Shown here one piece after another: positions 6,871 through 47,132 of a stretch of DNA of 53,050 nucleotides. The stretch spans positions 1 through 53,050 of IMG/VR virus record IMGVR_UViG_3300037537_000966; one strand, 5' to 3'. How positions within the stretch are numbered: the stretch's first letter is position 1; every line of letters starts with the position of its first letter. A model generated the notes under the pieces. That model saw only the letters and a list, made by a program, of their open reading frames with translations. It ran no database searches and was not told the origin of the DNA. This DNA comes from a virus. The translations under genes were made by a program, and so were the position numbers.

Positions 6871-6944
6871 AACGGGGTAGCCAAGTGGTAAGGCGGGAGT
6901 CTGCAAAACTCTTATCGTGGGTTCGATTCCCACCCTCGTTTCCA
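6871..6944 (+). tRNA. tRNA-Cys (GCA)
   Basis: Cloverleaf read by eye: acceptor AACGGGG (6871-6877) pairs with CCTCGTT (6934-6940), one G-U pair; anticodon stem GGAGT/ACTCT with loop CTGCAAA, anticodon GCA; T arm GTGGG-TTCGATT-CCCAC; discriminator U at 6941 as expected for Cys. CCA is encoded at 6942-6944. It begins right after the terminator T run, and its last A abuts palindromic element copy 2. No dedicated promoter is obvious. Confidence 0.92.
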
Positions 6945-27580: not shown

Positions 27581-27910
27581 ATGTCTAAATATAACAAAGC
27601 CACTTATTGCAAGAACTGTGGAGCCTCGAATAGTTGGGCTCTAAACCGAAAGAGTTCTTTGTTGAAGAAGCCTAAATTCTGTAATTCCTGTGGTTCTAAT
27701 CTAATTACAGGCAAAATAGCCGAAAAGGGAACAAAGGAGACTAAAAATACTGAGGAAGAGGACGAAGACGTCGCAATTCCTGATAATATTCCTCCATTGG
27801 AGTTAGATATGAATGCTTCGTATTTTCCAAAAATGGATTCTCAATCTTTAGGAAACTTGGTTTCGCCAGCTTTTAAGGAAAACGAAGAAGAATTAACAGA
27901 TGGCAGCTAA
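27581..27910 (+). CDS. Zinc-ribbon protein with acidic tail, 109 aa
   Basis: N-terminal CKNCG and CNSCG knuckles (about residues 10 and 35) form a typical zinc ribbon separated by a basic loop; residues 60-109 are acidic. It overlaps the sigma factor gene by 11 nt, so a role in late transcription (for example bridging sigma factor and polymerase) is plausible but inferred. Confidence 0.75.
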   Translation: MSKYNKATYCKNCGASNSWALNRKSSLLKKPKFCNSCGSNLITGKIAEKGTKETKNTEEEDEDVAIPDNIPPLELDMNASYFPKMDSQSLGNLVSPAFKENEEELTDGS

Positions 27911-28604
27911 AAAGAAACCCAACGAAAAAGTTAAATTAGAATTTGAAGACTTTATCAGCACTATAGACGAAGAGATATCCAAAAGGAAAAATAAGTGGAC
28001 TCTCACCTCTATTGCTTGGATGGATTTCGAAGATATTTCTCAGATTCTTAAAATACATATATTCAAAAAATGGCACCTTTATGATCAAAGCAAACCTCTA
28101 TTACCTTGGTTGAATAGAATCATATCCAATCAGCTTAAAAATTTAATAAGGAACAATTATAGTAATTACTGCAAGCCTTGTCTTAGGTGTGCGGCTGCGG
28201 AACCAGACTCTTCTTGCTCTATATATGGAACTCAGGATTCTAGATGCCCCCTCTATAAAAGATGGGTTCTGAAAAAAAAATCAGCCTACGATGTTAAGAT
28301 GGCTCTTCCGCTTGAGAACCATAGAAATGAGGTGAATGAAAGCCTGACTCATCCTTCCAGCATAGAAACTGGAATAATCAAGCTACACCAAAAACTTAAA
28401 GAGACCCTCAAACCAAACGAGTGGTTAGTATACAAAAGTTTTTATATAGATAATGAGTCGGAAGTGGATATAGCTAGAAAACTAAACTTTAAAACTACCG
28501 AGAAGAATAGGAGCCCCGGATACAAACAGATTAAAAATATACAAAAATCTATCATAAGTAAAGCTAAGAGAATATTAGAAAGGAACGAGTTGGATTGGTT
28601 ATGA
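27900..28604 (+). CDS. Phage RNA polymerase sigma factor (gp55-like late sigma), 234 aa
   Basis: Region 2-like segment: DFEDISQILKIHIFKKWHLY then SKPLLPWLNRIISNQLKNLI (about residues 42-82), corresponding to the core-binding and -10 recognition helices of sigma70-family factors. An inserted Cys cluster CKPCLRC ... CSIYG ... C (about 90-117) may bind zinc. The C-terminus (NEWLVYKSFYIDNESEVDIA then KTTEKNRSPGYKQIKNIQ) resembles region 4 HTH. It may direct host polymerase to late promoters, perhaps the GTGTAA motif seen upstream of many structural genes. Confidence 0.75.
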   Translation: MAAKKKPNEKVKLEFEDFISTIDEEISKRKNKWTLTSIAWMDFEDISQILKIHIFKKWHLYDQSKPLLPWLNRIISNQLKNLIRNNYSNYCKPCLRCAAAEPDSSCSIYGTQDSRCPLYKRWVLKKKSAYDVKMALPLENHRNEVNESLTHPSSIETGIIKLHQKLKETLKPNEWLVYKSFYIDNESEVDIARKLNFKTTEKNRSPGYKQIKNIQKSIISKAKRILERNELDWL

Positions 28605-29707
28605 ACGAAGATAATTTAGTTTTAAACCCAGAGCAGAAATTTGCTTTAGTTTCGATTAAAGATAGATTTCTCGCTGGAGATAAAGTAGACATATCCTTAA
28701 TGCATTTGATACAAGATGTAGCAGGTTTTGAGGGTAGGGACGGTAGGAGTAAAGAAGGCAGAGCTGTCAAAGCTTTCTTAAGTGAAATAGATCTGAACGC
28801 TGTCCCTGCTAGCGAATATCAGAAAGTCGACAAACCGGAACTTCTAGAAGAACACAAAGAGTTCATTCGTAACAACAAAGGGACAATGAAGTACGTAGAG
28901 ATGTCTCGCATACTATTTAGTAACGAAAAGCTAACTAGCTTAAGCGCTGAGACTAGAATGGTTACGGAATACTGCAAGAGTTTGGATGGAGAAAGCTTTG
29001 AGACTCCCGAAGGGGAGCAGGAAAGGTACGAGTATAAACCTCCAAAGCACCCAGATAGAGTTTTGAGTAGGATCAATAGATATATTTTAGATAGCGGCAT
29101 AGACAAAGATAAGGTTAGCCCTAGACAAAAAAAAGATATAGAAAAGTTAATGGGTTATCTTCATACTTTTAGATTCTGTCATCAGATGAGTAATTATAAT
29201 AACGGAACAGAAAGAGAGCTTTTCGAGTCTTCTTTCGTTAGGTATACTCACGACAAGCCCGATTTAACCCAAGAGGAGGTTGATCAATATATAATTCTTT
29301 CGGGAGAGGTTGTTATAGCATCGAATATTCAGAGAAGAGTAGGTAGGCTTACAAACTTATTAGACGAAACAGCGATGGATACTGAAGGACGAAGGATATC
29401 TATGAGCTTAGTGGAAGCCATAAGTACGGCTCAAAACGAATACAATTCATCCGTAAACAGACAGCATAAATTACTAAGCGACCTTAAACAAAAGAGGAGC
29501 GATAGGCTAAGTAAGCAAGTTCATGACAACGCAAGTATTCTAAACTTAGTTGAAACTTGGAAGGATGATGAGAGTCGAAAAGAGTTGATAAAAATGGCAG
29601 AGTTAAGAAAGAAAACAATTAAGGACGAGATAAATAAACTATCCACTATGGACGAAGTCAAAGCAAGGATATTTGGTATCTCAACAGAGGAGGCTCTCAA
29701 TGGTTAA
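28601..29707 (+). CDS. Hypothetical helical protein, 368 aa, between sigma factor and nuclease
   Basis: Start ATG 28601 forms an ATGA overlap with the sigma factor stop. The protein is charged and almost entirely helical, with a long C-terminal coiled-coil part (NRQHKLLSDLKQKRSDRLSK, WKDDESRKELIKMAELRKKT). No catalytic motif seen. Location two genes upstream of the large terminase makes a terminase small-subunit or packaging accessory role possible; this rests on position only. Confidence 0.6.
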   Translation: MNEDNLVLNPEQKFALVSIKDRFLAGDKVDISLMHLIQDVAGFEGRDGRSKEGRAVKAFLSEIDLNAVPASEYQKVDKPELLEEHKEFIRNNKGTMKYVEMSRILFSNEKLTSLSAETRMVTEYCKSLDGESFETPEGEQERYEYKPPKHPDRVLSRINRYILDSGIDKDKVSPRQKKDIEKLMGYLHTFRFCHQMSNYNNGTERELFESSFVRYTHDKPDLTQEEVDQYIILSGEVVIASNIQRRVGRLTNLLDETAMDTEGRRISMSLVEAISTAQNEYNSSVNRQHKLLSDLKQKRSDRLSKQVHDNASILNLVETWKDDESRKELIKMAELRKKTIKDEINKLSTMDEVKARIFGISTEEALNG

Positions 29708-30623
29708 ATGCAAAGTTGACGGAGAGGAGTTTGCGACAGAAAAAGAGTTGCATATGCATCTACGCAAACATAAACTCAGAATGGCTGAATATTACCAAAA
29801 GTATTATCCACGTAGAGACTTGCTGACTGAGGACTTAATTAAGTTTAAAAATAAAAGTCATTATTTTTCTAATCATTTCAACTCTAGAGTCAATATGCGT
29901 AAGTGGTTAGAGCAGGCTCCTCAAGAGGAGGCAAAAGAGTTTTGTATGAATCTATTAAAAGAGAGAATAGAGAGAAGGGGAATAAAGTATTGCCCGACTC
30001 AGGTTGAGATGAGGACCTCGATGATGCCGCCTATATTTTACTATCAACAGCTTTTTGGCAACTTTTATAACGCTTGCAAAGATGTTGGTTTAATTCCTAG
30101 ATTTACTAAATTTGCGACTGAGCCTATAGAAGAAAACATAGAAGAAGGCTACGAGATAATTATCGACACCAGAGAACAGAAGCCTCTTAACATAAATTAT
30201 GAGACAAGAAGAGAGGGCTTGAAATTTGCTGACTACTGGCTCGATAAAGAAGATAATAAATGCTACGTAGAAAGAAAAGAGACTAAAGATTTCATAGGAA
30301 CTTTCACAGGAGGCTGCGAAAGATTTTCTAGAGAGTTAGAAAGAGCCAAAGAGAAGGACGCGTATGTTGTGGTAGTCGTCGAAAATTCTTTAGATAATAT
30401 GATGAAGTTCAACTATCTAAAATATGTGACAAAAAAAGTGCAGGTAACGCCTGAGTTTGTAATGAGAAACGTTAGAGACATAATTCAGAAGCATGATAAC
30501 GTCCAGTTCCTTTTCGCCAAAGGCAGAACAGAAGCTACAAGACTAACAAGGAAGCTATTCTTCTGTGGGACGAATTATAGAGACATAGACCTACAATTAG
30601 CTTACGAGTTAAAACTTTTATGA
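29700..30623 (+). CDS. ERCC4-type nuclease with N-terminal zinc-finger-like segment, 307 aa
   Basis: ATG 29700 follows a GAGGAGG ribosome site and overlaps the previous stop. N-terminus has CKVDGEEF and LHMHLRKH, a degenerate C2H2 finger (second Cys missing) followed by EYYQKYYPRRD. The C-terminal half carries IIIDTREQKP (about 153-162) and the nuclease box VERKETKDF (about 190-198), the GDxn-ERKx3D signature of XPF/ERCC4 nucleases. Expected to cut branched DNA, perhaps resolving replication or packaging intermediates just upstream of the terminase. Confidence 0.8.
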   Translation: MVKCKVDGEEFATEKELHMHLRKHKLRMAEYYQKYYPRRDLLTEDLIKFKNKSHYFSNHFNSRVNMRKWLEQAPQEEAKEFCMNLLKERIERRGIKYCPTQVEMRTSMMPPIFYYQQLFGNFYNACKDVGLIPRFTKFATEPIEENIEEGYEIIIDTREQKPLNINYETRREGLKFADYWLDKEDNKCYVERKETKDFIGTFTGGCERFSRELERAKEKDAYVVVVVENSLDNMMKFNYLKYVTKKVQVTPEFVMRNVRDIIQKHDNVQFLFAKGRTEATRLTRKLFFCGTNYRDIDLQLAYELKLL

Positions 30624-30624
30624 T

Positions 30625-32478
30625 ATGTGGTCTTGCCCGGAAAAATATAAAATAGAAGTCGAAGACGTAAACGATAGACTGTCTAGGCTCGAAGGCTTCC
30701 TTGATGACAAAACGGCGAAAATCACTCTAGCAAAGTTTCTGAGAAGCAACCTATACTTTACGACATATCTTTTAACTGGCATTAAGCTGGCTCCGTATCA
30801 GGAAATAACGCTGAGAGCGTTATTCAATAGGAACTTCAGTATGTGCGTATGGGGCCGTGGCTGCGGCAAGTCTTTTATAGCTTCTATATATTGCTTCCTC
30901 CAGTGCATTTTTGAGCCTAATACTAAAATACTTATAGCTGGGCCAACTTTTCGTACGGCAAGATTCATTTTTAATAACATAGAGAAAATAGTAGAGACTA
31001 GGGAAGCTGCTCTGCTGGCTCAAGCCTTCGGAGCTAAAACAAAAAGAAATGACCAGTACGAATGGAAAATAAATGGCGGTACTATAACAGCCATCCCCTT
31101 AAGTGGCGAAAAGATTCGTGGTTTTCGTGCTAACGTACTTGTGCTTGACGAGTTTATGCTTTTGCCAGAGGACATAATTAAAAATGTTTTAATGCCCTTC
31201 TTGGTCGCCCCCCAAGACATGACAAGAAGAATGCAGATAAGGGAAATAGAGGATGAATTAATACAGCAGGGAGCAATCGAAGAAAAGGACAGAACCGTGT
31301 TTACGAACACCTCAAAGATGATAGCTTTGTCTTCTGCGAGTTACACTTTTGAAAATTTATATAAGACATACCAAGAATGGGTAGGCAAAATAGAGAGCAA
31401 AGAAGATAAACAAGAAGCTAAATACTTTGTCTCCCAATTAGGTTACGAAGCCCTGCCTGAGGAAATGATAGACAGGACTATTATTAATGAAGCTTCAGAT
31501 GGAGGTTCCTCTCATTTCTCTTTTCAACGAGAATATTGTGCTCAGTTTACAGATGGTAGTGACAGCTACTTTAGCGCTAAGAAGATGGACCTATGCACCT
31601 TAACGGGCGATGAAGAGCCTTCTACTTTGGTGGTTGGTAGATCTGGCAAGAGTTATGTTCTAGGTGTTGACCCTAATATGAGCGATAGTCCTTCGGCTGA
31701 CTACTTTGCTATGGCTGTAATGGAAATAGATGACAGTACGGGTCGGGGAATTTTAGTCCATAGTTATGCGGGCTTGGGTAGCTTAAACAATCATGTAAAA
31801 TATTTAGCTTATCTACTTCAAGCTTTTAGTATTGTTTTTATATGTCTTGATAATGCTGGCTCTGATACATTTTTGGATAGTTGTAATGAGTCTCAATATT
31901 TTAAAGACGCTAGGGTGAATCTAAAAACGATTCCTTTGAACTCGGATGCAGAGGGACTAGATTATCAAAAATCATTAAAGCAGGCCAAAATAAAATATAA
32001 TTTGGAGAATAATCAAATTTGTTTTAATCAAGTTTTCACAACTACTTTTATTCGCAGAGCTAACGAGCATCTTCAAGCTTGTATAGATTATAAAAAGGTC
32101 TTGTTTGCTTCGAGGACAGCTTCTAACGAAACCTTTTTTAATAGAACAAGTACTCTTAGGCTTCCTTATCCTAAAAAAATAATTTTTACTGGAGATAGAA
32201 AAGATTGGACTATGCTTGATTTTATAGAGCATCAAGACGACATGATTTACCAAACAAAAAAACAATGTAGCTTGGTGGAACACAAAACAACTTCTAGGGG
32301 GTCTCAAAATTTTGACCTTCCACAGCACCTTAAAAGGTCCACTTCCCCTAATAAAGCAAGAAAAGATAATTATTCAGCATTAATGTTGGCGAATTGGGGA
32401 CTTAGGCTATATAACGATATAACTAGGACGGAAGTCAATAACAATAAGGAGACTTTCGAGCCTATTATGCTTTTTTAA
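30625..32478 (+). CDS. Terminase large subunit, 617 aa
   Basis: N-terminal ATPase: Walker A WGRGCGKSF (about residues 76-84), Walker B VLVLDEF (about 171-177), and an SSASYTFENLYKTY coupling region. C-terminal RNase H-like nuclease: SYVLGVDPNMSDSPSADYFA (about 343-362) supplies the first metal-binding Asp, and FICLDNAGSDTF (about 410-420) the next acidic strand. It packages DNA into proheads with ATP and cuts concatemers. Starts 1 nt after the nuclease stop. Confidence 0.92.
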   Translation: MWSCPEKYKIEVEDVNDRLSRLEGFLDDKTAKITLAKFLRSNLYFTTYLLTGIKLAPYQEITLRALFNRNFSMCVWGRGCGKSFIASIYCFLQCIFEPNTKILIAGPTFRTARFIFNNIEKIVETREAALLAQAFGAKTKRNDQYEWKINGGTITAIPLSGEKIRGFRANVLVLDEFMLLPEDIIKNVLMPFLVAPQDMTRRMQIREIEDELIQQGAIEEKDRTVFTNTSKMIALSSASYTFENLYKTYQEWVGKIESKEDKQEAKYFVSQLGYEALPEEMIDRTIINEASDGGSSHFSFQREYCAQFTDGSDSYFSAKKMDLCTLTGDEEPSTLVVGRSGKSYVLGVDPNMSDSPSADYFAMAVMEIDDSTGRGILVHSYAGLGSLNNHVKYLAYLLQAFSIVFICLDNAGSDTFLDSCNESQYFKDARVNLKTIPLNSDAEGLDYQKSLKQAKIKYNLENNQICFNQVFTTTFIRRANEHLQACIDYKKVLFASRTASNETFFNRTSTLRLPYPKKIIFTGDRKDWTMLDFIEHQDDMIYQTKKQCSLVEHKTTSRGSQNFDLPQHLKRSTSPNKARKDNYSALMLANWGLRLYNDITRTEVNNNKETFEPIMLF

Positions 32479-32484
32479 GTGTAA
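32479..32484 (+). promoter_or_regulatory. GTGTAA late-type motif
   Basis: AAGTGTAACTAATA directly after the terminase stop, 20 nt before ATG 32505. Confidence 0.45.
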
Positions 32485-32504
32485 CTAATATCAAATAAGC
32501 TGTT

Positions 32505-33629
32505 ATGCCGTCAAAATTAACAACTGGACAGATAGATGCTGATACTTTTACTCAGTTTATTCATGAGAAGGCTTCGGGAACTGCTACCAACACAAGCGGA
32601 TTTTACGCTTATAGCAATCCGCTGGGTTTTTTAGAGACAGACAGCTTCACCGGACATAGCGGAGTATTATCTGGGCAGACGACTACTCTAGTGACTGCGG
32701 TTAGTGGGGCTTTGGATAATAGTGGGTCATTGCTTTTCGACAAGGCGGAAAGTGTGTCGGGTCATGCCGAGTCCTTCACTACCGGCGCAAGCGGTAAGCT
32801 GCAAAATACTATAGTTTTCTGCTCGGGGCAATTCTCTTCAACTAGTGGAGAGTTCTTGAAGTCTGGTAGTTTTTACCATACAGGTTCGGGAGACTTTTCG
32901 GTTTCTGCAGCATCGGGAGCCTTAGCCTTTTCTTCTGGTCATAATGATACGCAGGGGCTTTTCCTTGCGACAGGAAACACGGCAAATAAAGATGCTTGGG
33001 TTAAAATAGTAGATAAGCCAGAAATGACAGGTTTCGTTGCTACTTCTAGCGGAGATTTAAAAACTAGCTTAAATACTACCGGAACAAATCTGAATACGTC
33101 TATATCTAACATCTTAACTGATGCTTCTACAAATTTCTCAGCAGTTAAAACCTTCAGTGCAGGTATAAAGACTAATAAGATAGAACTAAGTGGAGACGGA
33201 GTGACACTTAGGGTTAATGCGAATAACTCTCTTACGTTTGATGACGTAAGTGGTTCGTTACTCACTATGTCTCCGGGATATGGATCAGACTCTCCTGTCT
33301 TTTCTGTAACTGATAAAGCCGGTCTGCCTCTTATAGATGTTTACGATGACGATAGGCTGAACTTTGGCCCTTATGGCACAAACCCACTAAATATTAGTGG
33401 GGAGCGTGTATACTTTGGAAATTATAAGTCTTACATAAGCGGAAGCACGATATCTCTTAGTGGTAACCCATTAACGATAAATGATGTATTTACAATCAGT
33501 GGTCTATCTGGTGGGTACGTGTTCTTGAATAATTTACCCGAATGGCCTAATATAGGTGGGCTAAATAGTGGTGCGCTTTTCAGAAGCGGTAACCCGGGAG
33601 TAGGTCCCGGAATATTATGCGTTGTTTAA
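32505..33629 (+). CDS. Fibre-like virion protein, 374 aa, paralogue of the 42127 product
   Basis: Start MPSKLTTGQIDADTF. Ser/Gly/Thr-rich, repetitive 'xxSGxxx' beta pattern typical of phage fibres. The N-terminal region (TGQIDxxxF ... NTSGFYAYSNP) matches the 42127-42951 protein (TGQLDxxxL ... NTSGFLTYSNP), so they share an attachment domain. The C-terminus, FRSGNPGVGPGILCVV, is the type of end segment I associate with fibre or head-spike proteins. Very Ser-rich, a possible O-glycan acceptor. Confidence 0.7.
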   Translation: MPSKLTTGQIDADTFTQFIHEKASGTATNTSGFYAYSNPLGFLETDSFTGHSGVLSGQTTTLVTAVSGALDNSGSLLFDKAESVSGHAESFTTGASGKLQNTIVFCSGQFSSTSGEFLKSGSFYHTGSGDFSVSAASGALAFSSGHNDTQGLFLATGNTANKDAWVKIVDKPEMTGFVATSSGDLKTSLNTTGTNLNTSISNILTDASTNFSAVKTFSAGIKTNKIELSGDGVTLRVNANNSLTFDDVSGSLLTMSPGYGSDSPVFSVTDKAGLPLIDVYDDDRLNFGPYGTNPLNISGERVYFGNYKSYISGSTISLSGNPLTINDVFTISGLSGGYVFLNNLPEWPNIGGLNSGALFRSGNPGVGPGILCVV

Positions 33630-33632
33630 AAA

Positions 33633-35516
33633 ATGACAAAGAAAACAAATAACAAGAAAGAGGAAGTCACACCAATGATGACGAGCTTTGCCGCTTCGCC
33701 ATATACAACCGTCGATCAGTCAAGTAGGACGCGCAGGAATGTTGGAGGCCAGATAAATAGGACAAATAGGTATGAGAATATCGAGAACGGTTTAGTTCCC
33801 TACAAGTTTTCTAAAGGCGTCCAGAATAAAAGTTCTTTGGATGTGAGTGACGTCGTTATCCTTTGTCAAAAAGCTTATTATAATTTTTCAGTTTTTAGAA
33901 ATGTCATTGATTTGATGACGGAGTTCTCCGCTACAAAAGTCTATTTCACTGGTGGTAGTAAAAAGTCAAGAGATTTTCTCGAAGCATTGTTTAGAAAAAT
34001 AGATCTCCAAAGTTTTTTGGATAAGTTCTTCAGAGAATATTATCGTTCCGGGAATGTTTTTGTTCATAGGTTTGACACAAAGATACAGCCAGACGATTTA
34101 AAAAAGATCACCCAGACTTATGGCGCTAACTACCTGAAGCTTACCGAGGAAGAAAATACCTTACCTTCTAGGTATATAATTTTAAACCCTGCTGATATAC
34201 AAATGGGGGGGAATATATCCTTTAGCTCTGGGGTATACTATAAAGTTTTAAGTGACTACGAACTAGAGAGACTGAAGAATCCAAAGACTGAAGAAGACAA
34301 GCAAGTTTACGAGTCACTAGACCCAGAGACCAAGAAAGCTTTAAAAGGGAGAAACCTTGGAGTACTTAGTATACGGCTAGACCCCGATAAGTGTAGTCCA
34401 GTCTTTTACAAAAAGCAAGACTACGAACCATTCGCTGTACCTATGGGCTTTCCAGTTTTGGAAGATATAAATTGGAAGTCCGAGATGAAGAAGATGGATA
34501 TGGCTATAACCCGGACAACTAACCAAGCTATCTTGCTCATCACAATGGGTTCAGAGTTGAAAGACGGAAGTCTCAACGTTAACCAAAGAAGCATCGAGAC
34601 AATGCAAAAACTTTTCGAAAATCAATCAGTTGGAAAGGTTTTAGTATCAGACTACACAACTGAAGCAAAATTTGTTATTCCTGACATTGCTGGGATTCTT
34701 GATCCTAAAAAATACGATGTTGTTAATACTGATATACAAATGGGACTAAACAATATCTTAGTTGGAGAAGATAAGTTTGCTAATACTAGCATCAAAATTC
34801 AAGTCTTTATAGAAAGATTGAAGCAGGGAAGAGAAGCCTTCTTGAATCAATTTTTATCCCCAGAGATTAAAAGAATTTGTAAGTCGCTAGGCTTTAAAAA
34901 TTATCCTCAACCTCATTTTGAAGAGATTGAATTAAAAGATAAGACTACTTGGAATAGGGTTGTCGCTCAGCTTCTGCAATATGGAGTTTTGACTGCAGAA
35001 GAAGGTCTTCAGGCTATCGACACGGGACGTCTACCCGAACCAACAGAATCTATAGAGTCCCAAAAGAGATTCAAGGAGTTAAAAGAGGAAGGTTATTATG
35101 CTCCGCTCATAGGTGGGAGCCAAGAAGAAGGTCGGCCTGAGGGAAGTAAATCCCCGCAAACAACGAAAAAGGTTACCCCTGTTGGAGAAAACACGAGCGG
35201 TTCTCAAAAGTTTAGTATTGAAAAGATTAAGCAGAATTTGTCTTTAGCTGAGAAGCTTGAGACAGAAGTGCAAGAGCATTTAAAATTGAAATACGGAAAC
35301 AAAAGAGTTACTAATAAAATTAGAAGCCTTGCGAATGAAGTATGCAAGGTGGTCATGGCTAACGAACCGGCAGAAAAATGGTTGGATAAAAGCAGGAAGT
35401 ATGTAGATAACCCAACAGACACTAATTCTAAAAAAGTTAAGGAAATACAGAGTATAGCTTATGAGCATCAAGTAGATGATTACTTAGCAAGCTTACTCTA
35501 CGAAAGCAAAATTTAA
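33633..35516 (+). CDS. Portal protein, 627 aa
   Basis: Long protein after the terminase, with features of phage portals: ILCQKAYYNFSVFRNVIDLM at the start of the wing, SGNVFVHRFDTKIQPDD, and the hinge/stem part with NILVGEDKFANTSIKIQVFI then a helical crown. It forms the dodecameric DNA gate at one capsid vertex. The last 130 residues are charged and helical (SIEKIKQNLSLAEKLETEVQ). Synteny terminase-portal-protease-MCP supports the call. Confidence 0.85.
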   Translation: MTKKTNNKKEEVTPMMTSFAASPYTTVDQSSRTRRNVGGQINRTNRYENIENGLVPYKFSKGVQNKSSLDVSDVVILCQKAYYNFSVFRNVIDLMTEFSATKVYFTGGSKKSRDFLEALFRKIDLQSFLDKFFREYYRSGNVFVHRFDTKIQPDDLKKITQTYGANYLKLTEEENTLPSRYIILNPADIQMGGNISFSSGVYYKVLSDYELERLKNPKTEEDKQVYESLDPETKKALKGRNLGVLSIRLDPDKCSPVFYKKQDYEPFAVPMGFPVLEDINWKSEMKKMDMAITRTTNQAILLITMGSELKDGSLNVNQRSIETMQKLFENQSVGKVLVSDYTTEAKFVIPDIAGILDPKKYDVVNTDIQMGLNNILVGEDKFANTSIKIQVFIERLKQGREAFLNQFLSPEIKRICKSLGFKNYPQPHFEEIELKDKTTWNRVVAQLLQYGVLTAEEGLQAIDTGRLPEPTESIESQKRFKELKEEGYYAPLIGGSQEEGRPEGSKSPQTTKKVTPVGENTSGSQKFSIEKIKQNLSLAEKLETEVQEHLKLKYGNKRVTNKIRSLANEVCKVVMANEPAEKWLDKSRKYVDNPTDTNSKKVKEIQSIAYEHQVDDYLASLLYESKI

Positions 35517-35521
35517 TAAAA

Positions 35522-36682
35522 ATGAGCGAACAAGGCAATATACAAGACGTTAATCAGTACATGGGGGCAGATACAGTAGATATAATTGTACCGGATATTC
35601 CCCTACCCCCAGAACCTGAAGAAAAAGCAGAAGAAATAGAAGATAAGGTTGATGGAGCTTTTAAATTTGCTTTTATAGGAGCTGGTCAAGGTGGATCTAG
35701 AATAGCGGAAACTTTTCACAAATTAGGCTATAGGAAAATAGGTATTCTCAATACGGCTGAGCAAGATATGAACAGTATCAATGTGGAAAACAAGCTTTGC
35801 ATAGGTACTGGAGGAGCTGGTAAAGATAGAGCCGTAGCTGAAAAATGTTTTAACGAAAGAAGAGACGATGTTTTAGATTTTATGCGTCGGTCTTTCGGCG
35901 ATGATGTAGACAGAGTATTTATTTGTGCTGGAGCCGGAGGAGGCTCGGGAGCGGGTACTTTAGTTCCTCTGGTTGAAACCTGTAGGGAGCTTCATGAGTC
36001 TATTGGTGCAGATAGTAAGAAGGTTGGCGTTATTCTGGCTCTGCCGAAATATTCAGAAGGTAGGAGGGTTAATGCTAACGCATATGAGACGCTCAAGGAT
36101 GCGTGTGACTTGGTCAAGAAAGGGATGATCTCTCCTTTGGTGATTATAGATAACGAAAAAACTAGCAAGATATACTCTAATGTGTCCGTAGCTAACTTTT
36201 GGCAGACAGCTAACATGAGTATGGCTGGAGTTTTTCACTTATTTAATATGACAGCCTCGAAAGACAGTTCGTATTCATCTTTCGATTCTAGTGACTATAA
36301 AGGTGTGCTTGATTCTGGTATCGTAGTTTTTGGAGCTACTCCGGTCCCGGATTGGAAAGACCCAATAAACATCTCCAGAGCAGTGAGGGGTATTGCTCAA
36401 AGCGGTAGTATGTCGGGAGGTATAGATATAGCTACCGCTAATACAGCGGGAGCTATTTTGATTGGAGGGAAAGAGGTTTTAGATAACATCCCCCAATCTA
36501 ATCTCGATCAAGCTTTCGATCAGCTTACTAGGATCCTCAGTTCGGGGAGTACAGTACACAGGGGTATATATAGCGGTGACAAAGAGACCCTTACCGTTTT
36601 TACCATCATTGGTGGAATATCTACCCCTCAGGAGAAGTTAGACGAGCTAATGAAGCTAGGAGATTTAGAGGAAACCCCTTAA
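35522..36682 (+). CDS. FtsZ/tubulin-like GTPase, 386 aa
   Basis: An acidic 45-residue N-terminal extension precedes FAFIGAGQGGSRIAETFHKL (T1 nucleotide loop, GAGQGG about residues 53-58). CIGTGGAGKDRAV and CAGAGGGSGAGT (about 136-147) match the tubulin signature G-box. SFDSSDYKGVLDSG can supply the acidic T7 residues needed for GTP hydrolysis. FtsZ/TubZ/PhuZ proteins polymerise into filaments; in jumbo phages PhuZ centres the phage nucleus. Here it is embedded between portal and capsid genes and lacks PhuZ-like surroundings, so a role in head positioning, DNA delivery or host-division interference is open. Confidence 0.85.
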   Translation: MSEQGNIQDVNQYMGADTVDIIVPDIPLPPEPEEKAEEIEDKVDGAFKFAFIGAGQGGSRIAETFHKLGYRKIGILNTAEQDMNSINVENKLCIGTGGAGKDRAVAEKCFNERRDDVLDFMRRSFGDDVDRVFICAGAGGGSGAGTLVPLVETCRELHESIGADSKKVGVILALPKYSEGRRVNANAYETLKDACDLVKKGMISPLVIIDNEKTSKIYSNVSVANFWQTANMSMAGVFHLFNMTASKDSSYSSFDSSDYKGVLDSGIVVFGATPVPDWKDPINISRAVRGIAQSGSMSGGIDIATANTAGAILIGGKEVLDNIPQSNLDQAFDQLTRILSSGSTVHRGIYSGDKETLTVFTIIGGISTPQEKLDELMKLGDLEETP

Positions 36683-36711
36683 AGAAAATATTTCTAAAAG
36701 TGGAAAAAACA

Positions 36712-36732
36712 ATGTAATTGAATGTATATAAT
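36712..36732 (+). promoter_or_regulatory. Late-type promoter for the 36747 gene
   Basis: ATGTAA (36712-36717), 9 nt, TATAAT (36727-36732), followed by AGGAG and ATG 36747. No -35 matching TTGACA. Confidence 0.55.
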
Positions 36733-36746
36733 AGGAGAAATTTAGA

Positions 36747-37349
36747 ATGGCAAATACAGATACAGCTTTTATTTTAAGCAAACACGGCAGCCCGATCACT
36801 CAACTTACCAGTGGTGCCGGGGCTGGTAAAATCAAATTCATCGTTGGGGGTGCGGTCAAATCGGCTTCGGATACAACTGCCGGTAAAGTAGGTCCGACAG
36901 GGATCGTTCTTCCTCTTCACGGAGCGAGCATAACAAGCTTCCCTGATCATGACTCTACGATGAGTCATACAGCTACTAACGTCATAGGTGATCCCGCAGA
37001 AGGTAACTATGCTTTGACTTCAGGTGATTTGTTTAAGGCTGACTCTGATTGGTCAGAAAAAAATGGTGGCGCACAAAAATTTGTTAACGCTGTACTTGAC
37101 TCAGCCTATAGAGGCTACACCTCGGGTGTTGCTCAATCTAGTGGGCTCAGCAGCATGACAGTTACAAGGGGAGACCTAAGTCTCTCAAATACTGCCGTCA
37201 ACGACGGCACGGGAGTTATTAATACTTATAGCAGAAGCTATACTGTAAACTTTAAATACTTTCAGTCTGGAACCATTAATGCTTCTGGATCTCTTGATCC
37301 TTCCAAGCCAGATATTGCGGATGATAATTCGGACGGTGCTCCGTTCTAA
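36747..37349 (+). CDS. Probable virion protein, 200 aa
   Basis: Good ribosome site (AGGAG), own promoter upstream and strong terminator downstream, so a high-level single-gene unit within the head module. The sequence is Gly/Ser/Thr-rich, beta-type, without Cys (MANTDTAFILSKHGSPITQL, SGAGAGKIKFIVGGAV). Likely a structural or decoration protein; no family recognised. Confidence 0.7.
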   Translation: MANTDTAFILSKHGSPITQLTSGAGAGKIKFIVGGAVKSASDTTAGKVGPTGIVLPLHGASITSFPDHDSTMSHTATNVIGDPAEGNYALTSGDLFKADSDWSEKNGGAQKFVNAVLDSAYRGYTSGVAQSSGLSSMTVTRGDLSLSNTAVNDGTGVINTYSRSYTVNFKYFQSGTINASGSLDPSKPDIADDNSDGAPF

Positions 37350-37376
37350 TTGTAGAAACTGCTTTTTCCTATTTTA

Positions 37377-37406
37377 AACCCCCCATGTTTGTGGGGGTTT
37401 TTTTTA
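37377..37406 (+). terminator. Intrinsic terminator
   Basis: AACCCCC (37377-37383) pairs with GGGGGTT (37393-37399), followed by a T run. Confidence 0.85.
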
Positions 37407-37433
37407 TTTTTTTTATAAGTTTTTTAAAAATAA

Positions 37434-37443
37434 GTGTATAAAC
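37434..37443 (+). promoter_or_regulatory. GTGTA late-type motif
   Basis: AAGTGTATAAAC 15 nt upstream of ATG 37458. Confidence 0.4.
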
Positions 37444-37457
37444 TTTTAGGCAACTTG

Positions 37458-37928
37458 ATGCAATTTAATTTTAAGATGAAATCTTTAGATCTAGACTATG
37501 CCATAGGAGCAAAACCGACACTAACTTCTAGTATAGAAAGAACCTTAAAAAGGGACGACTTAGCTATAGAATTTTCAAACAAAGTTCAAGAGATACTCCT
37601 CGGCAAAATTACCTCTCATAATTTAACTAATGATGTTGAGGTAAGTCTAGATCAAGTTACTAAGATTTTCAAAGATAGTTTTGCGAGCTTCCTTAGACCA
37701 AGCTTTGCTTTAGCTGACGTAAACATATTTCTCAATATGGCTACAGCAGGAAATGTTGATATGGGCGATCACTTTGAGCCCTCAATAGAGGAAATAAAAG
37801 AGGCAGAAAGAGAAACTAAGGGGTACGGTCTAGAGAATTATTACTTTAGGAACGTAGATGATCTATATCTACAAACTGATGAAGAGATGAAAGCTGAAGC
37901 TGACACTTGGCTAGCAAGTGTAACGTAA
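37458..37928 (+). CDS. Hypothetical protein of the head module, 156 aa
   Basis: ATG 37458 (MQFNFKMKSLDLDYAIGA) chosen; an in-frame GTG at 37434 belongs to the promoter-like motif. Acidic, helical, with EEIKEAERETKGYGLENYYF and a C-terminal TDEEMKAEADTWLASVT. No family recognised. Position suggests a head or neck assembly protein. Confidence 0.65.
   Translation: MQFNFKMKSLDLDYAIGAKPTLTSSIERTLKRDDLAIEFSNKVQEILLGKITSHNLTNDVEVSLDQVTKIFKDSFASFLRPSFALADVNIFLNMATAGNVDMGDHFEPSIEEIKEAERETKGYGLENYYFRNVDDLYLQTDEEMKAEADTWLASVT
37918..37923 (+). promoter_or_regulatory. GTGTAA late-type motif
   Basis: AAGTGTAACG overlapping the end of the preceding gene, 16 nt before ATG 37940. Confidence 0.4.
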
Positions 37929-37939
37929 GGAATAAAAAA

Positions 37940-38230
37940 ATGGCAAGATCATTATCAACACCCACTCAAGGACAAGCACCCGTTGGCAACACAGCCAGCA
38001 AAACAGGAGCAGGCGTAGTAGTAGCAGCCGTTACTGGCGGTACTATTGTCATAACAGACATACTCGCTTCTGCTGCAACAACGATAAGCACATTAACAGG
38101 GGGAGGCGGAACTATTCTAGCTTACATGCCCGCTGGTGCAAGCAATTTTACCTCTGGTCTTCCTGTCGCTACTAGTGCAGGCGTTTTTAGCTCAGCCGGA
38201 AATGTTACTATAAATTATTATGTCAAGTAA
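37940..38230 (+). CDS. Probable small virion protein, 96 aa
   Basis: ATG 37940 with AAGGA upstream. Gly/Ala/Thr-rich with a hydrophobic beta pattern (GAGVVVAAVTGGTIVITDIL, TISTLTGGGGTILAYMPAG), ending NVTINYYVK. Looks like a compact beta protein, such as a head decoration or fibre-tip protein. Overlaps the protease-scaffold gene by 11 nt. Confidence 0.65.
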   Translation: MARSLSTPTQGQAPVGNTASKTGAGVVVAAVTGGTIVITDILASAATTISTLTGGGGTILAYMPAGASNFTSGLPVATSAGVFSSAGNVTINYYVK

Positions 38231-39725
38231 AATGAAATATACTACAATTTTCAGCTCTAACGTAAAGCCTGTAGTTTCAGAAGAGAGGGATAAATATCTA
38301 GCTTTAGCATCAGCTATAGAAGTTGCTCAATTCGTACCAGACATAGATACCGACAAACAAGTTGATTTATTGCCAATAGCTTTTAATGCTTTTGTTGCTA
38401 ATAGGGTAAATAGGAATGGCGATGTTGTAGATACGGAAACAGCGCTTGCCTTCTATAAAGATTTTAAAAATAAGCCTATTAATGTTGAGCATAATAGAGA
38501 CAGGGTGATTGGGACTATTTTGACTGCTGGATTTTCTGAATTCGGTACAGACAAAGCTCTCACAGAAGAGGAAGTAGTAGATCTAGAAGGTCCATTCAAT
38601 GTAACCTTGGGGGGAGTCATTTGGAAAGTAGTAAATGAAAGACTAGCTAGCCTAATAGAAGACTCAGCTGATCCTAGTAGCGAAGACTATATGAAGATTA
38701 GCGCTAGCTGGGAGTTAGGTTTTGCTGATTTTAATTTGGTGCTTTTAGAGGGAAATGATAAGAACATAGAAGATGGGACTATTATCGATAGCGAAATCGA
38801 AATTAAAGCCCTAGAGGGGAATTTAAAAGCAATGGGGGGAGAAGGCAAAACCAAAGATGGAAAATTTATATACAGAAAAGTGGTTGGCACAGTTGTTCCT
38901 TTGGGTATAGGACTAACAGAGACCCCTGCTGCAGATGTTAAAGGCATATCTACCGACAGCACTGCAGAATTAGAAGATCTACAGAGCAAATTATCTGTAG
39001 AGGAAAAAGAAGACAATTTTGCTGAAGTTGATAAAACTTCACAAACACAAGAAAATAATGTAATAATCCAAAACGAGGAAAAAATTATGAAAATAGAAAG
39101 TATTAAAGACATAACTAACGAGTCTTTGAAGGAGCTTTCCGCCTCGGCTGTCTCTGATTTTATCGAATCAGAACTCAAGGAAGCTTCCGAGAGATTCTCA
39201 GCCGAAAAAATCAAGGTGGAGGCGAGTCTCAAAGAAGCGCAGGAGAATATCGCCGCTGTTACTGCAGAGGCCGATAAGATCAGGGTAGAACTGGATTCTG
39301 TCACAGACAAAATGACTAGTCTTGAAGCTGAAAAAGCAGAAATGAAAGCTGAAGAGTTATTCAATCAAAGAATGGCATCTTTAGACGAGAACTTTGCTTT
39401 AGAAGATGAAGACCGTCATGTATTGGCTGAGCAGGTCAAGTCTCTTGATGAAGAGGGATGGGAGTCCTTCTCGAAGAGAATGGACGTTCTACTTAGAGAC
39501 AAGTCAAGAGAAGTCTTGGCAAAGCAAGAAGAAGAGAAGAAGACTACTGAGGTTGAGGCAAAACCTGAAGAGTCCAAAGCTTCTGATAGTGTCGTTGAAG
39601 ACGCCATTGACAGAGGTGAGGAGGAATCAGAGGTTGTGCCTACTTCCACGCAGGCTTCCGAAAGTTCTACTTACGATAAATATAAAAGCGCTTTTAGCGT
39701 AGAACAATTTGATATTAAATATTAA
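38220..39725 (+). CDS. Prohead protease fused to scaffold, 501 aa
   Basis: The N-terminal third has KNKPINVEHNRDRVIGTILT (catalytic His about 91) and YMKISASWELGFADF (catalytic Ser about 161), the His/Ser layout of herpesvirus-type/T4 gp21-like prohead proteases. From about residue 285 it is an acidic coiled coil (EASERFSAEKIKVEASLKEA; AEADKIRVELDSVTDKMTSL), i.e. a scaffold. An internal ATG (MKIESIKDITNES, near 39087) could express the scaffold alone. The protein guides capsid assembly and then cleaves itself and other head proteins. Confidence 0.8.
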   Translation: MSSKMKYTTIFSSNVKPVVSEERDKYLALASAIEVAQFVPDIDTDKQVDLLPIAFNAFVANRVNRNGDVVDTETALAFYKDFKNKPINVEHNRDRVIGTILTAGFSEFGTDKALTEEEVVDLEGPFNVTLGGVIWKVVNERLASLIEDSADPSSEDYMKISASWELGFADFNLVLLEGNDKNIEDGTIIDSEIEIKALEGNLKAMGGEGKTKDGKFIYRKVVGTVVPLGIGLTETPAADVKGISTDSTAELEDLQSKLSVEEKEDNFAEVDKTSQTQENNVIIQNEEKIMKIESIKDITNESLKELSASAVSDFIESELKEASERFSAEKIKVEASLKEAQENIAAVTAEADKIRVELDSVTDKMTSLEAEKAEMKAEELFNQRMASLDENFALEDEDRHVLAEQVKSLDEEGWESFSKRMDVLLRDKSREVLAKQEEEKKTTEVEAKPEESKASDSVVEDAIDRGEEESEVVPTSTQASESSTYDKYKSAFSVEQFDIKY

Positions 39726-39746
39726 TATTTTAGGAGATAATAAATT

Positions 39747-40388
39747 ATGGCAACGTTTGTAAAAAACACACAACGGCTGAAGCCTTTTAGGCAACACGCT
39801 GAGACAGACGTCGTTAACCTTTTCAGTCTGAAAGACGATGACGGAGACGTCGTAGCTTCTTATGCTGACCTTAAAGCCGATGGCGGTAAGGTCAATAAGG
39901 GGCTCGTTGTTTCTGTTAAGAATGGCTGGAAAAACACTGACGACCCTGTAAATAAAACTGGTATCGGCAACCCCGGTGCTACGTTTTCAAACACGGTATC
40001 ATTCCGTTACGGCGCAGCTGCAACAGTGGAACCTTGTGCTTCTGGATCTCAACCTCTCGGTTTAACCATTTGGGACGTCGCTGAAGTCGACGAAAATGGT
40101 GAGAAGTTGATTTACCATCCGCGCAAGGCCGCTGAGATGCAGGCTGTGGTTAGTGGTCAGGCAGTTCCTGTCTTGACCAAGGGTATTGTTCTCTATAGTG
40201 GGAATCTGACTAGCGGTGGCGCTGATGGCGTTTCGGCTGGTGCTAAGGTTTACGCTGACATGCTTCGTCAGGGTGATCTGAGTTCCTCTGCTACAGAGAG
40301 TACTGGCGGAGCAAGCCAAATTCAAGTAGGCACTGCTCTCGGGGCTACTGATGCTGATGGTTTCATTCTGTTGAAGCTTGACCTCTAA
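39747..40388 (+). CDS. Probable head decoration/virion protein, 213 aa
   Basis: Between protease-scaffold and major capsid genes, with AGGAG ribosome site. Beta-rich, Gly/Ala/Val-rich: GKVNKGLVVSVKNGW, TVSFRYGAAATVEPCASG, VPVLTKGIVLYSGNL. This location and composition fit a capsid decoration protein; no family recognised. Confidence 0.65.
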   Translation: MATFVKNTQRLKPFRQHAETDVVNLFSLKDDDGDVVASYADLKADGGKVNKGLVVSVKNGWKNTDDPVNKTGIGNPGATFSNTVSFRYGAAATVEPCASGSQPLGLTIWDVAEVDENGEKLIYHPRKAAEMQAVVSGQAVPVLTKGIVLYSGNLTSGGADGVSAGAKVYADMLRQGDLSSSATESTGGASQIQVGTALGATDADGFILLKLDL

Positions 40389-40413
40389 GATTTAAGAAAG
40401 GAAATTTAAGAAA

Positions 40414-41583
40414 ATGAGACTTAAGTTAAAAAACACCCCAGAACAAGTGGAACTCATCAAAGCGATGGGTAACAAAAATCAGCTTGTTGCACGCGAAGCC
40501 TCAGAAGCTTTTGCAGCTTTTCTAGGCCCTGTGGTTCAGAAAGTTTTGCAGCAGGCCGCTACGGCCGGAGCCATCTACACGGATGCTCCATTTAATCAAG
40601 ACGAAGGAGCTAGCTATCCTCTAGACTTGTACTATAATGAAACCAATGATGGTTACGTTAGTGTATGGTCACAGAACGTCGCAGGTGGTCTTCCGACCTC
40701 TCAAGACGTCTCTGCGATTCAAGAGTTGAAGATCGCTACTTATCGTTTGGATACAGCCGTTTCGATCACCAAGAAATACGCCAGACAGGCTAGACTCGAC
40801 GTAGTCAGTAAGCTTATCGAGCGTATGGCTCAGGAAGTACTACTCAAGCAGGAAAGAAATGCTTGGGCAGTGGCTCTTTACGCATTGGCTAATGCGAGCA
40901 CAAGTCATGTGACTGCTAGTTCCGTTGGAATTACGTCCTTGGCTGCTGGTTCGCACGTTATCCCTGCGTACAACACTAATAGGTTCCAGCTCGCTGACCT
41001 TAACAAGTTGATGACTCTTAATAAGAGAATTAATCAGTCTTGGGCAGCTGGTACAGCCGATGCCCCTTTCAGTGCAGGGATTACTGACTTGTATGTCAGC
41101 CCTGAGATCAAGGAGCAGATTCGCGCTTTTGCTTATCAACCGATGAACACAAAGGGCGCAGGTCAGGCAACCCCGAGAACTGACGTTCCGCTTCCGGATA
41201 ATATTCGTACCGACATCTTTAACTCTGCTGGTATGCAGGAGATTTATGGTGTGAATGTTGTGGAGCTTAACGAACTTGGTATTGGACAGAAGTACAACAC
41301 CTTGTTTGACGAGTTTGATAGCGGAAATATTGCTCCTCATGCTTCTACTGCTGGCGAGGCTATTGCTTTCGCTGGTGCGACTCATGAGCTGTGTGTCGGT
41401 CTCGATAACAGTAAGGGTGCGTTTGTTCGTGCCATTTCTGTTGACGCAGACACAGGCGATACCTTTACAACTGCCCCTGATGATCAGTTTACTCAGAGAA
41501 ATGAGAGAATTGGTTTCTATGGTTCGTTGGAAGAGGGAAGAGTTTGTATTGACTCCAGAGCAGTCGTTGGTTTGACAGTTTAG
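40414..41583 (+). CDS. Major capsid protein, HK97-fold type, 389 aa
   Basis: The N-terminal part is helical (EQVELIKAMGNKNQLVAREA), then ITKKYARQARLDVVSKLIER and QERNAWAVALYALANAS form the spine helix region. NSAGMQEIYGVNVVELNEL lies in the C-terminal axial domain, as does NERIGFYGSLEEGRVCIDSR. Length, position after the protease-scaffold and an adjacent strong terminator all fit. Assembles the icosahedral shell. Confidence 0.85.
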   Translation: MRLKLKNTPEQVELIKAMGNKNQLVAREASEAFAAFLGPVVQKVLQQAATAGAIYTDAPFNQDEGASYPLDLYYNETNDGYVSVWSQNVAGGLPTSQDVSAIQELKIATYRLDTAVSITKKYARQARLDVVSKLIERMAQEVLLKQERNAWAVALYALANASTSHVTASSVGITSLAAGSHVIPAYNTNRFQLADLNKLMTLNKRINQSWAAGTADAPFSAGITDLYVSPEIKEQIRAFAYQPMNTKGAGQATPRTDVPLPDNIRTDIFNSAGMQEIYGVNVVELNELGIGQKYNTLFDEFDSGNIAPHASTAGEAIAFAGATHELCVGLDNSKGAFVRAISVDADTGDTFTTAPDDQFTQRNERIGFYGSLEEGRVCIDSRAVVGLTV

Positions 41584-45721: not shown

Positions 45722-46792
45722 ATGAATGAAGTTCCTTTTTACGAGGCAGCCAAGCCCCTCTTTAAAGAAAAGTCAAGAGGGCAGATAACCGCAAAAGATG
45801 TAATTCTAAAGATTAATGCTTTTTCTTTTGGGGATACTCTTGCGGCGACACCCACATTAAGAAAACTAGCCCATTCTTACGCTAAAAAAATCATTGTTGC
45901 CACCAGTAAGCCGTTCTTATTTGAACATAATCCGCATGTAGAATTTACTATTAATCTTAATGATTTTAAAGACGAGTTTTATGAAAATTATGAAGTCTTA
46001 GACACTTTTAACTCGATAGGTAAAGAAGATAAAGCTGGCATAGAGTCAAAATATGGGCTCTTTGACATAAGAAGGATACATTGCACTGAGATAGGGTTTG
46101 ATCTCAGGCCAGACGAGATGCACTGCGACTACTATCCGGGACCTACTGAATTTGAAGAAAAGGATCAAGAGTTTATTAATAATAATAACTATGTCGTTAT
46201 CCATATTGGAAAAAATTGGCCCAGCAGAACTTGGCCGGAAGATAGCTATAAGAACTTAATTAAAAGTTTGAATGACGAAGGAGTTGCTGTGGCCTTAGTG
46301 GGTTTCGATCAAAATCCAGATCCCGGAAAATATGATCACGATAAATCTTGTTACGCCTTTGGGGACTTTAAATTTGATGGAGTCAGCTTCATGAATAGGA
46401 CTAGTCTCGATCAAGATTATTATGTGACTGAAAATTCAGACGCTTGCATTACTCTTGATACAGGGCAGCTCCATTTGGCAGGATGCACAGATACGTATAT
46501 TGTTCAAATAGGAGCCTCTATCAACCCTTTGTGGAGAGCTCCTTACAGAAATGGTTCTCAAGAGTATAAGTACACTTTTGTAAATGGGACATGTTATTCC
46601 TTTTGTGCTTCAGATCCTCAGTATTCTGTCATAGAGCATGGTACAATCAATAGCGTACCTCCTCTCCCGTATTGCCTAGAAGGAAGGCCTAATTACGATT
46701 GCCAGCCTAGTTGGGAAAAAGTATTAGAGGCTACATTAAAAGTTTTAGGCAGCGTGAACAATAAACCCAAGGAGTCGGTATCTGGTTGGTAA
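45722..46792 (+). CDS. GT9-type (heptosyltransferase-like) glycosyltransferase, 356 aa
   Basis: Rossmann start VILKINAFSFGDTLAATPTL, second domain YVVIHIGKNWPSRTWPEDSY (about 157-176), and DTGQLHLAGCTDTYIVQIGA (about 246-265), the nucleotide-sugar binding region of ADP-heptose:LPS heptosyltransferase-like GT9 enzymes. The C-terminus has an unusual Cys set (CYSFC, then C and C). Expected to transfer heptose or a related sugar. First gene of the 45722-51607 sugar cassette. Confidence 0.82.
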   Translation: MNEVPFYEAAKPLFKEKSRGQITAKDVILKINAFSFGDTLAATPTLRKLAHSYAKKIIVATSKPFLFEHNPHVEFTINLNDFKDEFYENYEVLDTFNSIGKEDKAGIESKYGLFDIRRIHCTEIGFDLRPDEMHCDYYPGPTEFEEKDQEFINNNNYVVIHIGKNWPSRTWPEDSYKNLIKSLNDEGVAVALVGFDQNPDPGKYDHDKSCYAFGDFKFDGVSFMNRTSLDQDYYVTENSDACITLDTGQLHLAGCTDTYIVQIGASINPLWRAPYRNGSQEYKYTFVNGTCYSFCASDPQYSVIEHGTINSVPPLPYCLEGRPNYDCQPSWEKVLEATLKVLGSVNNKPKESVSGW

Positions 46793-46793
46793 A

Positions 46794-47132
46794 ATGATAG
46801 ATTGCGACCTTTTTGAAACACACAAGGGGAATAAGAGCTATCCTTTAGTAGCTGAGTTAAATATAATAAATTCTAGACCTTCGTTTGTACGGGACGACTT
46901 TAAGTTATTTTTAACCCCTTTTATTGAGGATGGCGTACTGCATTGTGATTGGGTAAATCAAGAAAACGATTTAGATTTTAATCTTCTAAGAGCCGTATTT
47001 TTTATTAATAAAGTTCCTATGGAGGAGCATACTTTCACAATACCTCACAATGAGGATAATGAATCTTGGTGGGGACATCCTTACATGGATAGACTACTTA
47101 ATAAATTAAGCATTAAATTTTATGGCTGCTGA
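46794..47132 (+). CDS. Carbamoyltransferase-linked small protein, copy B (112 aa)
   Basis: Homologue of the 17317-17664 protein: DLFETHKGNKSYPLVAEL, SRPSF, WWGHP and the C-terminal LSIKFYG all align. Starts 1 nt after the GT9 gene and overlaps the following carbamoyltransferase by 11 nt, exactly as copy A does. Predicted all-beta and soluble. Function inferred only from the repeated gene order. Confidence 0.75.
   Translation: MIDCDLFETHKGNKSYPLVAELNIINSRPSFVRDDFKLFLTPFIEDGVLHCDWVNQENDLDFNLLRAVFFINKVPMEEHTFTIPHNEDNESWWGHPYMDRLLNKLSIKFYGC

What the first reader, a model, noticed from the sequence alone, without database searches (positions are those of the whole stretch)
35522..36682. FtsZ/tubulin-like GTPase embedded between portal and capsid genes
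All key nucleotide-binding loops and an acidic T7-like segment are present, plus a novel acidic N-terminal extension. Known phage tubulins (PhuZ, TubZ) are not usually within the head module. It may organise capsids, DNA, or block host division.
Basis: partly seen in the sequence, partly recalled or inferred. Interest (0 to 1): 0.7.

Follow-up and report, generated by a model that had tools for sequence, protein, structure and literature searches.

The report
Phage tubulin coupled to portal gene
An uncultured, probably bacterial, virus carries a genuine relative of tubulin (the protein of cell skeletons) directly behind the gene for the DNA entry port of its head, and this pairing is kept across a large group of related viruses, which suggests a virus-made cytoskeleton tied to building or filling virus heads.

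Summary
The ORF at 35522-36682 is a real tubulin/FtsZ-superfamily GTPase: Pfam Tubulin is over its cut-off, all T1-T7 loops are present, and an AlphaFold model (pTM 0.82) matches TubZ, FtsZ and CetZ. It lies between a portal and a protease-scaffold/capsid block. The placement is not a one-off. In every fetched related contig that also carries the portal, the tubulin gene follows it, usually by 1-5 nt or with an overlap; one subclade has a 1.3-1.5 kb insert. It is as conserved as the large terminase and more than the major capsid protein, and it co-evolves with portal and terminase (Mantel r about 0.95). It forms its own clade (support 100), apart from PhuZ and FtsZ, with weak affinity to TubZ. 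No TubR gene stands next to it, and it lacks the long C-terminal helix and tail of TubZ/PhuZ; instead it has a disordered acidic N-terminus with a conserved motif. A sister clade with the same head module has no detectable tubulin in fragments up to 133 kb, so it is not obligatory for that head. Best reading: a GTP-driven filament whose cargo is the portal or prohead, a PhuZ-like job done by a TubZ-like protein (inferred, about 0.4). New variant of a known kind.

The parts
35522..36682 (+). tubulin/FtsZ-superfamily GTPase gene (386 aa)
35522..35662 (+). N-terminal extension (residues 1-47): acidic, proline-rich, predicted disordered, with a conserved D...PD.P.P motif
   Evidence: model pLDDT below 50 for residues 1-38; invariant D20 P24 D25 P27 P29 E38 D41; alignment of 24 relatives
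35678..35701 (+). T1 loop GAGQGGSR (residues 53-60)
35930..35956 (+). T4 tubulin signature GAGGGSGAG (residues 137-145)
36188..36259 (+). core helix H7 (residues 223-246), holding the strictly conserved NFWQTANMS block of the family
36281..36295 (+). T7 catalytic loop FDSSD (residues 254-258); both acidic residues invariant
36626..36679 (+). short C-terminal helix with conserved P..KL.EL.KL motif; no long H11 helix or tail
33633..35516 (+). portal protein gene (627 aa), ends 5 nt before the tubulin start
   Evidence: AlphaFold model matches only portals; profile weakly hits SPbeta YonE 9pha
30625..32478 (+). large terminase gene (617 aa)
   Evidence: Pfam Terminase_6N, PHROG terminase; remote similarity to YonF-type terminases
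32505..33629 (+). 374-aa Ser/Gly/Thr-rich protein between terminase and portal, found mainly in the window's subclade
36747..37349 (+). 200-aa protein downstream of the tubulin with a strong ribosome-binding site; only in the window's subclade
37380..37397 (+). intrinsic-terminator-like stem followed by T8, closing the portal-tubulin segment
37434..37928 (+). poorly conserved small protein between tubulin and protease, present with and without tubulin
38220..39725 (+). probable prohead protease fused to a coiled-coil scaffold (501 aa)
   Evidence: position, conservation and sequence layout; no family hit, so inferred
39747..40388 (+). 213-aa conserved probable head decoration protein
   Evidence: function inferred
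40414..41583 (+). major capsid protein
   Evidence: Pfam Phage_capsid_4 E 0.0013, below cut-off; conserved across loci, with a ribosome-binding site in every one

Best explanation
SHOWN BY SEQUENCE: the gene encodes a tubulin/FtsZ-superfamily GTPase of its own family, most like TubZ in sequence and fold. It has intact nucleotide-binding loops and an intact T7 loop, the set that lets one subunit complete the active site of its neighbour. It is coupled to the portal gene and inherited with the head module in a large group of tailed viruses. INFERRED: the protein assembles into GTP-dependent polar filaments late in infection, when portal and prohead proteins are made. Its conserved disordered N-terminus and/or its C-terminal helix bind a head-assembly partner, most likely the portal or a prohead, so that the filament positions or carries prohead/portal complexes, for example to the replicating DNA for packaging. 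This is the capsid-carrying job known for PhuZ, done here by a TubZ-like protein. It would be a fitness aid rather than an essential part of the head, because a sister clade with the same head module has no detectable tubulin. Tubulin identity about 0.97, polymerising GTPase about 0.85, head/portal-linked cargo about 0.4.
For: Family; loops aligned and invariant; own clade with support 100, apart from PhuZ and FtsZ. Portal coupling: the tubulin gene follows the portal gene in every fetched related contig carrying both, 1-5 nt apart or overlapping by 4-17 nt, except one subclade with a 1.3-1.5 kb insert, where the tubulin still lies between portal and protease. Every portal relative of 79% identity or more with room downstream has it. 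Vertical inheritance: tubulin vs terminase r 0.95, tubulin vs portal r 0.96. Constraint: mean identity in distant pairs is 65% for tubulin, 64% terminase, 56% MCP, 52% portal, 52% protease; dN/dS about 0.03 (dS saturated). In the window's subclade the gene has no ribosome-binding site of its own and in the window it starts 5 nt after the portal stop, which fits co-translation. No TubR-like gene next to it and no iteron array in 33300-37500. PhuZ carrying capsids along filaments is reported in PMC13282480.
Against: No biochemistry, localisation or interaction data exist here; polymerisation itself is untested. Gene neighbourhood shows shared expression and inheritance, not binding. A sister clade with homologous portal, protease and MCP genes shows no tubulin in fragments up to 133 kb, so the head can be built without it. 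Weak or coupled translation in the window's subclade argues for modest amounts, whereas filaments usually need many copies, although about a third of the relatives have a ribosome-binding site. The motif-binding step rests only on conservation.
Confidence: 0.4

Rival explanations
1. Viral DNA positioning or segregation: a TubZ/PhuZ-type filament that moves or centres viral DNA, whose adaptor is encoded elsewhere; its place behind the portal is only a late-operon location.
For: Closest sequence and fold match is TubZ, a plasmid segregation tubulin; PhuZ centres phage DNA and is likewise absent from a third of its family (PMC10299810).
Against: The usual TubR gene directly upstream, a small gene seen at that place in most of the plasmid TubZ loci fetched, is replaced by the portal; no iterons nearby. 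An early or DNA-linked role does not predict strict coupling to the portal gene.
Confidence: 0.25
2. Structural or core component of the prohead: the tubulin fold is used as a static head or portal-vertex part, with GTP as a structural ligand.
For: Position between portal and protease/scaffold, where many tailed phages keep head-core genes; conservation as high as terminase; tight co-inheritance.
Against: Sister clade with the same head genes shows no tubulin; the catalytic T7 acids are strictly conserved, which a static part would not need; the probably abundant head genes nearly all carry strong ribosome-binding sites (MCP 100%, 39747 gene 92%) and the tubulin mostly does not (33%).
Confidence: 0.15
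3. Interference with host cell division: a tubulin-like decoy that blocks or co-opts host FtsZ.
For: Superfamily homology to FtsZ; phage inhibitors of FtsZ are known from general knowledge.
Against: Distant from FtsZ (own clade; about 20% identity); full catalytic machinery conserved; coupling to the portal gene is unexpected for a host-takeover gene.
Confidence: 0.12
4. A non-functional or accidental host-gene capture.
For: None beyond its absence from the sister clade.
Against: Open frame in the relatives, strong purifying selection, conserved place, few presence/absence changes (2, against at least 11 in shuffles).
Confidence: 0.02

Closest known systems
TubZ (type III plasmid partition tubulin, Bacillus group; PDB 2xka, 4ei7)
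   Same: Best sequence match (E 4e-15) and best fold match (E 6e-24, TM 0.74/0.70 for 2xka_C); DN motif in T6; FD.S[DE]-type T7 loop.
   Different: No adjacent TubR gene and no iterons; coupled to a portal gene; lacks the long C-terminal helix and tail; has a disordered N-terminal extension; only weakly grouped with TubZ in the tree (support 45-50).
PhuZ (Chimalliviridae phage tubulin, e.g. phiKZ gp39)
   Same: Phage-encoded tubulin; accessory rather than universal; suggested cargo includes capsids.
   Different: Separate long-branch clade; only 2 of 25 relatives hit the PhuZ PHROG, weakly; fold match much weaker; PhuZ is not portal-coupled; the longest records here are about 160 kb; no chimallin match found, but that search had no positive control.
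Bacillus phage G gp138 (FtsZ-like) and uncultured Caudovirales 'FtsZ' A0A6J5RW92
   Same: Viral FtsZ/TubZ-like proteins; A0A6J5RW92 is the nearest viral fold match (26% identity).
   Different: gp138 is 22% identical and lies among nucleotide-metabolism genes, not next to a portal; no functional account of either was found in the papers searched.
FtsZ / CetZ
   Same: Tubulin fold and loops; CetZ2 TM 0.80 by target length.
   Different: TIGR00065 FtsZ equivalog 50 bits against a cut-off of 295; outside the FtsZ clade; CetZ not placed in the tree.

Membership tests
Tubulin/FtsZ superfamily | GTPase domain with T1-T6 loops including the GGG[TS]G T4 signature | tested here: met
Tubulin/FtsZ superfamily | Two-domain fold joined by core helix H7, with acidic T7 loop | tested here: met
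Tubulin/FtsZ superfamily | GTP-dependent polymerisation | not testable with these tools
   needs protein assays
TubZ (TubZRC partition) | TubR DNA-binding gene directly upstream | tested here: not met
   upstream gene is the portal in nearly all loci, or an insert in one subclade; a sequence search for TubR elsewhere was empty but weak, because TubRs barely detect one another
TubZ (TubZRC partition) | tubC iteron centromere nearby | tested here: not met
   no iteron array in 33300-37500; rest of the genome not tested
TubZ (TubZRC partition) | Monophyly with TubZ | tested here: inconclusive
   nearest but support 45-50
TubZ / PhuZ | Long C-terminal helix H11 with extended tail | tested here: not met
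   protein ends with a 10-residue helix after the last strand in the model; H11 in TubZ/PhuZ per PMC3678025
PhuZ (Chimalliviridae) | Groups with PhuZ in phylogeny or profile | tested here: not met
PhuZ (Chimalliviridae) | Genome encodes chimallin nuclear shell | tested here: inconclusive
   no match in five long records, but no positive control
FtsZ | Passes FtsZ equivalog cut-off / lies in FtsZ clade | tested here: not met
   50 bits vs 295
CetZ | Groups with CetZ in phylogeny | not tested
   no CetZ reference put in the tree; fold similarity only

The most novel reading that the evidence does not exclude
A tubulin dedicated to virus head assembly or packaging: a filament-forming GTPase co-translated with the portal that positions portal/prohead complexes, in phages that are not known to form a nucleus.
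Probability: 0.35. Interest if true: 0.82.

Novelty: new variant of a known kind. Interest (0 to 1): 0.6.

Why it matters
Phage tubulins are described mainly from nucleus-forming jumbo phages (PMC11835377 calls tubulin a distinguishing function of Chimalliviridae, with a handful elsewhere) and from TubZ partition systems. This is a separate, abundant family in uncultured viruses, with 200 confirmed stretches in one scan, locked to the portal gene. If its cargo is the portal or prohead, a virus-made cytoskeleton would be part of ordinary head morphogenesis outside the nucleus-forming phages. The closely related clade without detectable tubulin is a natural control.

Tried and rejected
(1) Chance or misread ORF: rejected. 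(2) Non-tubulin Rossmann GTPase: rejected by profile, loops and fold. (3) PhuZ family member: rejected by tree and profile. (4) TubZRC partition cassette: no adjacent TubR, no iterons. (5) Obligatory head part: weakened by sister-clade contigs with no tubulin by family profile or Pfam. (6) Cellular homologue or host through genome contigs: the scan with the tubulin alignment gave none; a scan with the window's carbamoyltransferase gave only about 30%-identical Segetibacter genes, which says nothing firm about the host. (7) T4-type late promoter TATAAATA: six matches, not above chance. (8) Profile searches against solved structures for MCP and protease gave nothing usable. (9) Chimallin search empty but uncontrolled. 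(10) A 2025 survey of chimallin and PhuZ phages (PMC12625630) was not held.

Full report
WHAT IS THERE. The window is a 53,050-base virus record. The flagged ORF, 35522-36682 on the + strand, is 386 aa long. It passes the Pfam cut-offs for Tubulin (41.5 vs 33 bits) and Tubulin_2 (29.6 vs 27); all 25 aligned relatives match both families. The best solved-structure match is TubZ/RepX (4ei7, E 4e-15; 3e-18 with the family profile). A model built from 25 sequences has mean pLDDT 81 and pTM 0.82. Its best PDB matches are TubZ filaments (2xka, E 6e-24), then FtsZ and CetZ. T1 to T7 all align with FtsZ, TubZ and PhuZ, and both acidic T7 residues (D255, D258) are invariant.

NEIGHBOURS. The gene upstream was identified as a portal by structure: the modest-confidence model (pTM 0.43) has only portals and portal-neck complexes among its 50 best PDB matches, and the family profile's only PDB hit is SPbeta YonE (E 0.017; that YonE is the SPbeta portal is from general knowledge). 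TerL at 30625-32478 is clear and remotely resembles YonF-type terminases. Downstream come three small genes, a probable protease-scaffold fusion, a 213-aa probable decoration protein and the MCP. The MCP call rests on a sub-threshold Pfam hit (E 0.0013) plus position; the protease call on position and layout only. A terminator-like stem with T8 closes the portal-tubulin segment at 37380-37397.

RELATED SEQUENCES. A scan of IMG/VR with the single protein gave 64 loci; with the alignment 200 stretches were confirmed. In every fetched locus that carries both genes, the tubulin gene follows the portal gene on the same strand, 1-5 nt later or overlapping by 4-17 nt, apart from one subclade in which a gene of about 430 aa, with a small ORF in some members, sits between them (1.3-1.5 kb). 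Anchoring on the portal instead, so that the tubulin did not drive the sampling, every relative of 79% identity or more with room downstream has the tubulin gene. More distant relatives (portal 55-58%) split: one lineage has it (L132), others show no tubulin there and run portal, 37434-type gene, protease, MCP, or carry other genes in the slot. A second portal scan seeded in that clade gave 80 loci without any tubulin next to the portal. Seventeen longer records were searched whole with the family profile and with Pfam: only the tubulin-clade record included as a positive rang, and sister-clade fragments of 97-133 kb did not. They are fragments, so absence is likely, not proven.

INHERITANCE AND CONSTRAINT. 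Tubulin distances track terminase (r 0.950) and portal (r 0.956) distances over 44 loci. On a terminase+portal tree presence/absence needs 2 changes, against at least 11 with shuffled labels; the rooting is by midpoint, so one old gain with losses or two gains are both possible. In distant pairs mean identity is tubulin 65%, terminase 64%, MCP 56%, portal 52%, protease 52%. dN/dS is about 0.03, with dS saturated, so only the direction is safe.

PHYLOGENY AND ANATOMY. The viral proteins form one clade (support 100) on a long branch, nearest TubZ but without support (45-50), clearly apart from PhuZ and FtsZ. TubZ and PhuZ carry a C-terminal helix H11 with an extended tail (PMC3678025); here the protein ends in a short helix with a conserved P..KL.EL.KL motif. 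Instead it has an N-terminal extension of about 47 residues, disordered in the model but with invariant D20, P24, D25, P27, P29, E38 and D41. Conserved motifs in disordered tails often bind partners; that is inference.

EXPRESSION. Counting generously (any start codon in the first 20 codons), strong ribosome-binding motifs precede the MCP in 100% of distinct loci, the 39747 gene in 92% and the 36747 gene in 97%, but the terminase in 3%, the portal in 11% and the tubulin in 33%. The window's own gene has none and starts 5 nt after the portal stop. In the window's subclade the tubulin therefore looks translated with the portal rather than made in bulk. About a third of relatives do have a site, so this is no general rule.

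HOW IT MOST LIKELY WORKS. Shown: a complete tubulin fold and catalytic set, coupling to the portal, vertical inheritance with the head module, dispensability at clade level (as far as fragments allow). Inferred: GTP-driven filaments late in infection whose terminal motifs hold a portal or prohead, placing heads where DNA is packaged, comparable with PhuZ carrying capsids (PMC13282480). I put this at about 0.4, DNA positioning at 0.25, a static head part at 0.15 and a host-division decoy at 0.12.

NOVELTY. Literature searches found phage tubulins discussed for Chimalliviridae and TubZ systems (PMC11835377, PMC10299810, PMC7162821, PMC9123017), a tubulin/FtsZ protein cluster in hot-spring viruses (PMC8597652), and none coupled to a portal. 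The library lacks most subscription papers, so prior description cannot be excluded. A deposited uncultured Caudovirales protein named FtsZ (A0A6J5RW92, 26% identity) shows that the wider group is already in databases by annotation.

Noticed in passing
window 17657-20852 and 45722-51607: Two clusters of sugar-modification genes: carbamoyltransferase, methyltransferase and NAD-dependent epimerase in the first; glycosyltransferases (one of 1018 aa with several GT domains), a second carbamoyltransferase N-domain gene and DUF6165 in the second.
   Followed up: partly
window 30625-35516: Terminase and portal both show remote similarity to the SPbeta YonF/YonE type.
   Followed up: partly
window 27900-28604: Conserved protein with a sub-threshold sigma-70 region 2 match, kept upstream of the terminase block in most relatives; possibly a late sigma factor.
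   Followed up: no
window 29673-30623: ERCC4-domain protein directly before the terminase, conserved with the packaging block.
   Followed up: no
window 30625-41583 and related loci: Sharp split in ribosome-binding sites: nearly universal before MCP, the 39747 gene and the 36747 gene, nearly absent before terminase, portal, the 37434 gene and protease.
   Followed up: yes
L042 8631-9929; L046 8442-9752: A gene of about 430 aa of unknown function is inserted between portal and tubulin in one subclade.
   Followed up: partly
L128: In this relative without tubulin behind the portal, the genes after the portal switch strand, with a 1301-aa ORF on the minus strand.
   Followed up: no
window 14446-14964 (-): Cell-wall hydrolase (PF07486), which fits a bacterial host.
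   Followed up: no
window 4255-5184 and 6871-6944: RuvB-like AAA+ ATPase with winged-helix C-terminus, and a single tRNA-Cys gene.
   Followed up: no
window 32505-33629: Ser/Gly/Thr-rich protein with repeated SG-type motifs between terminase and portal, variable in identity among relatives.
   Followed up: no
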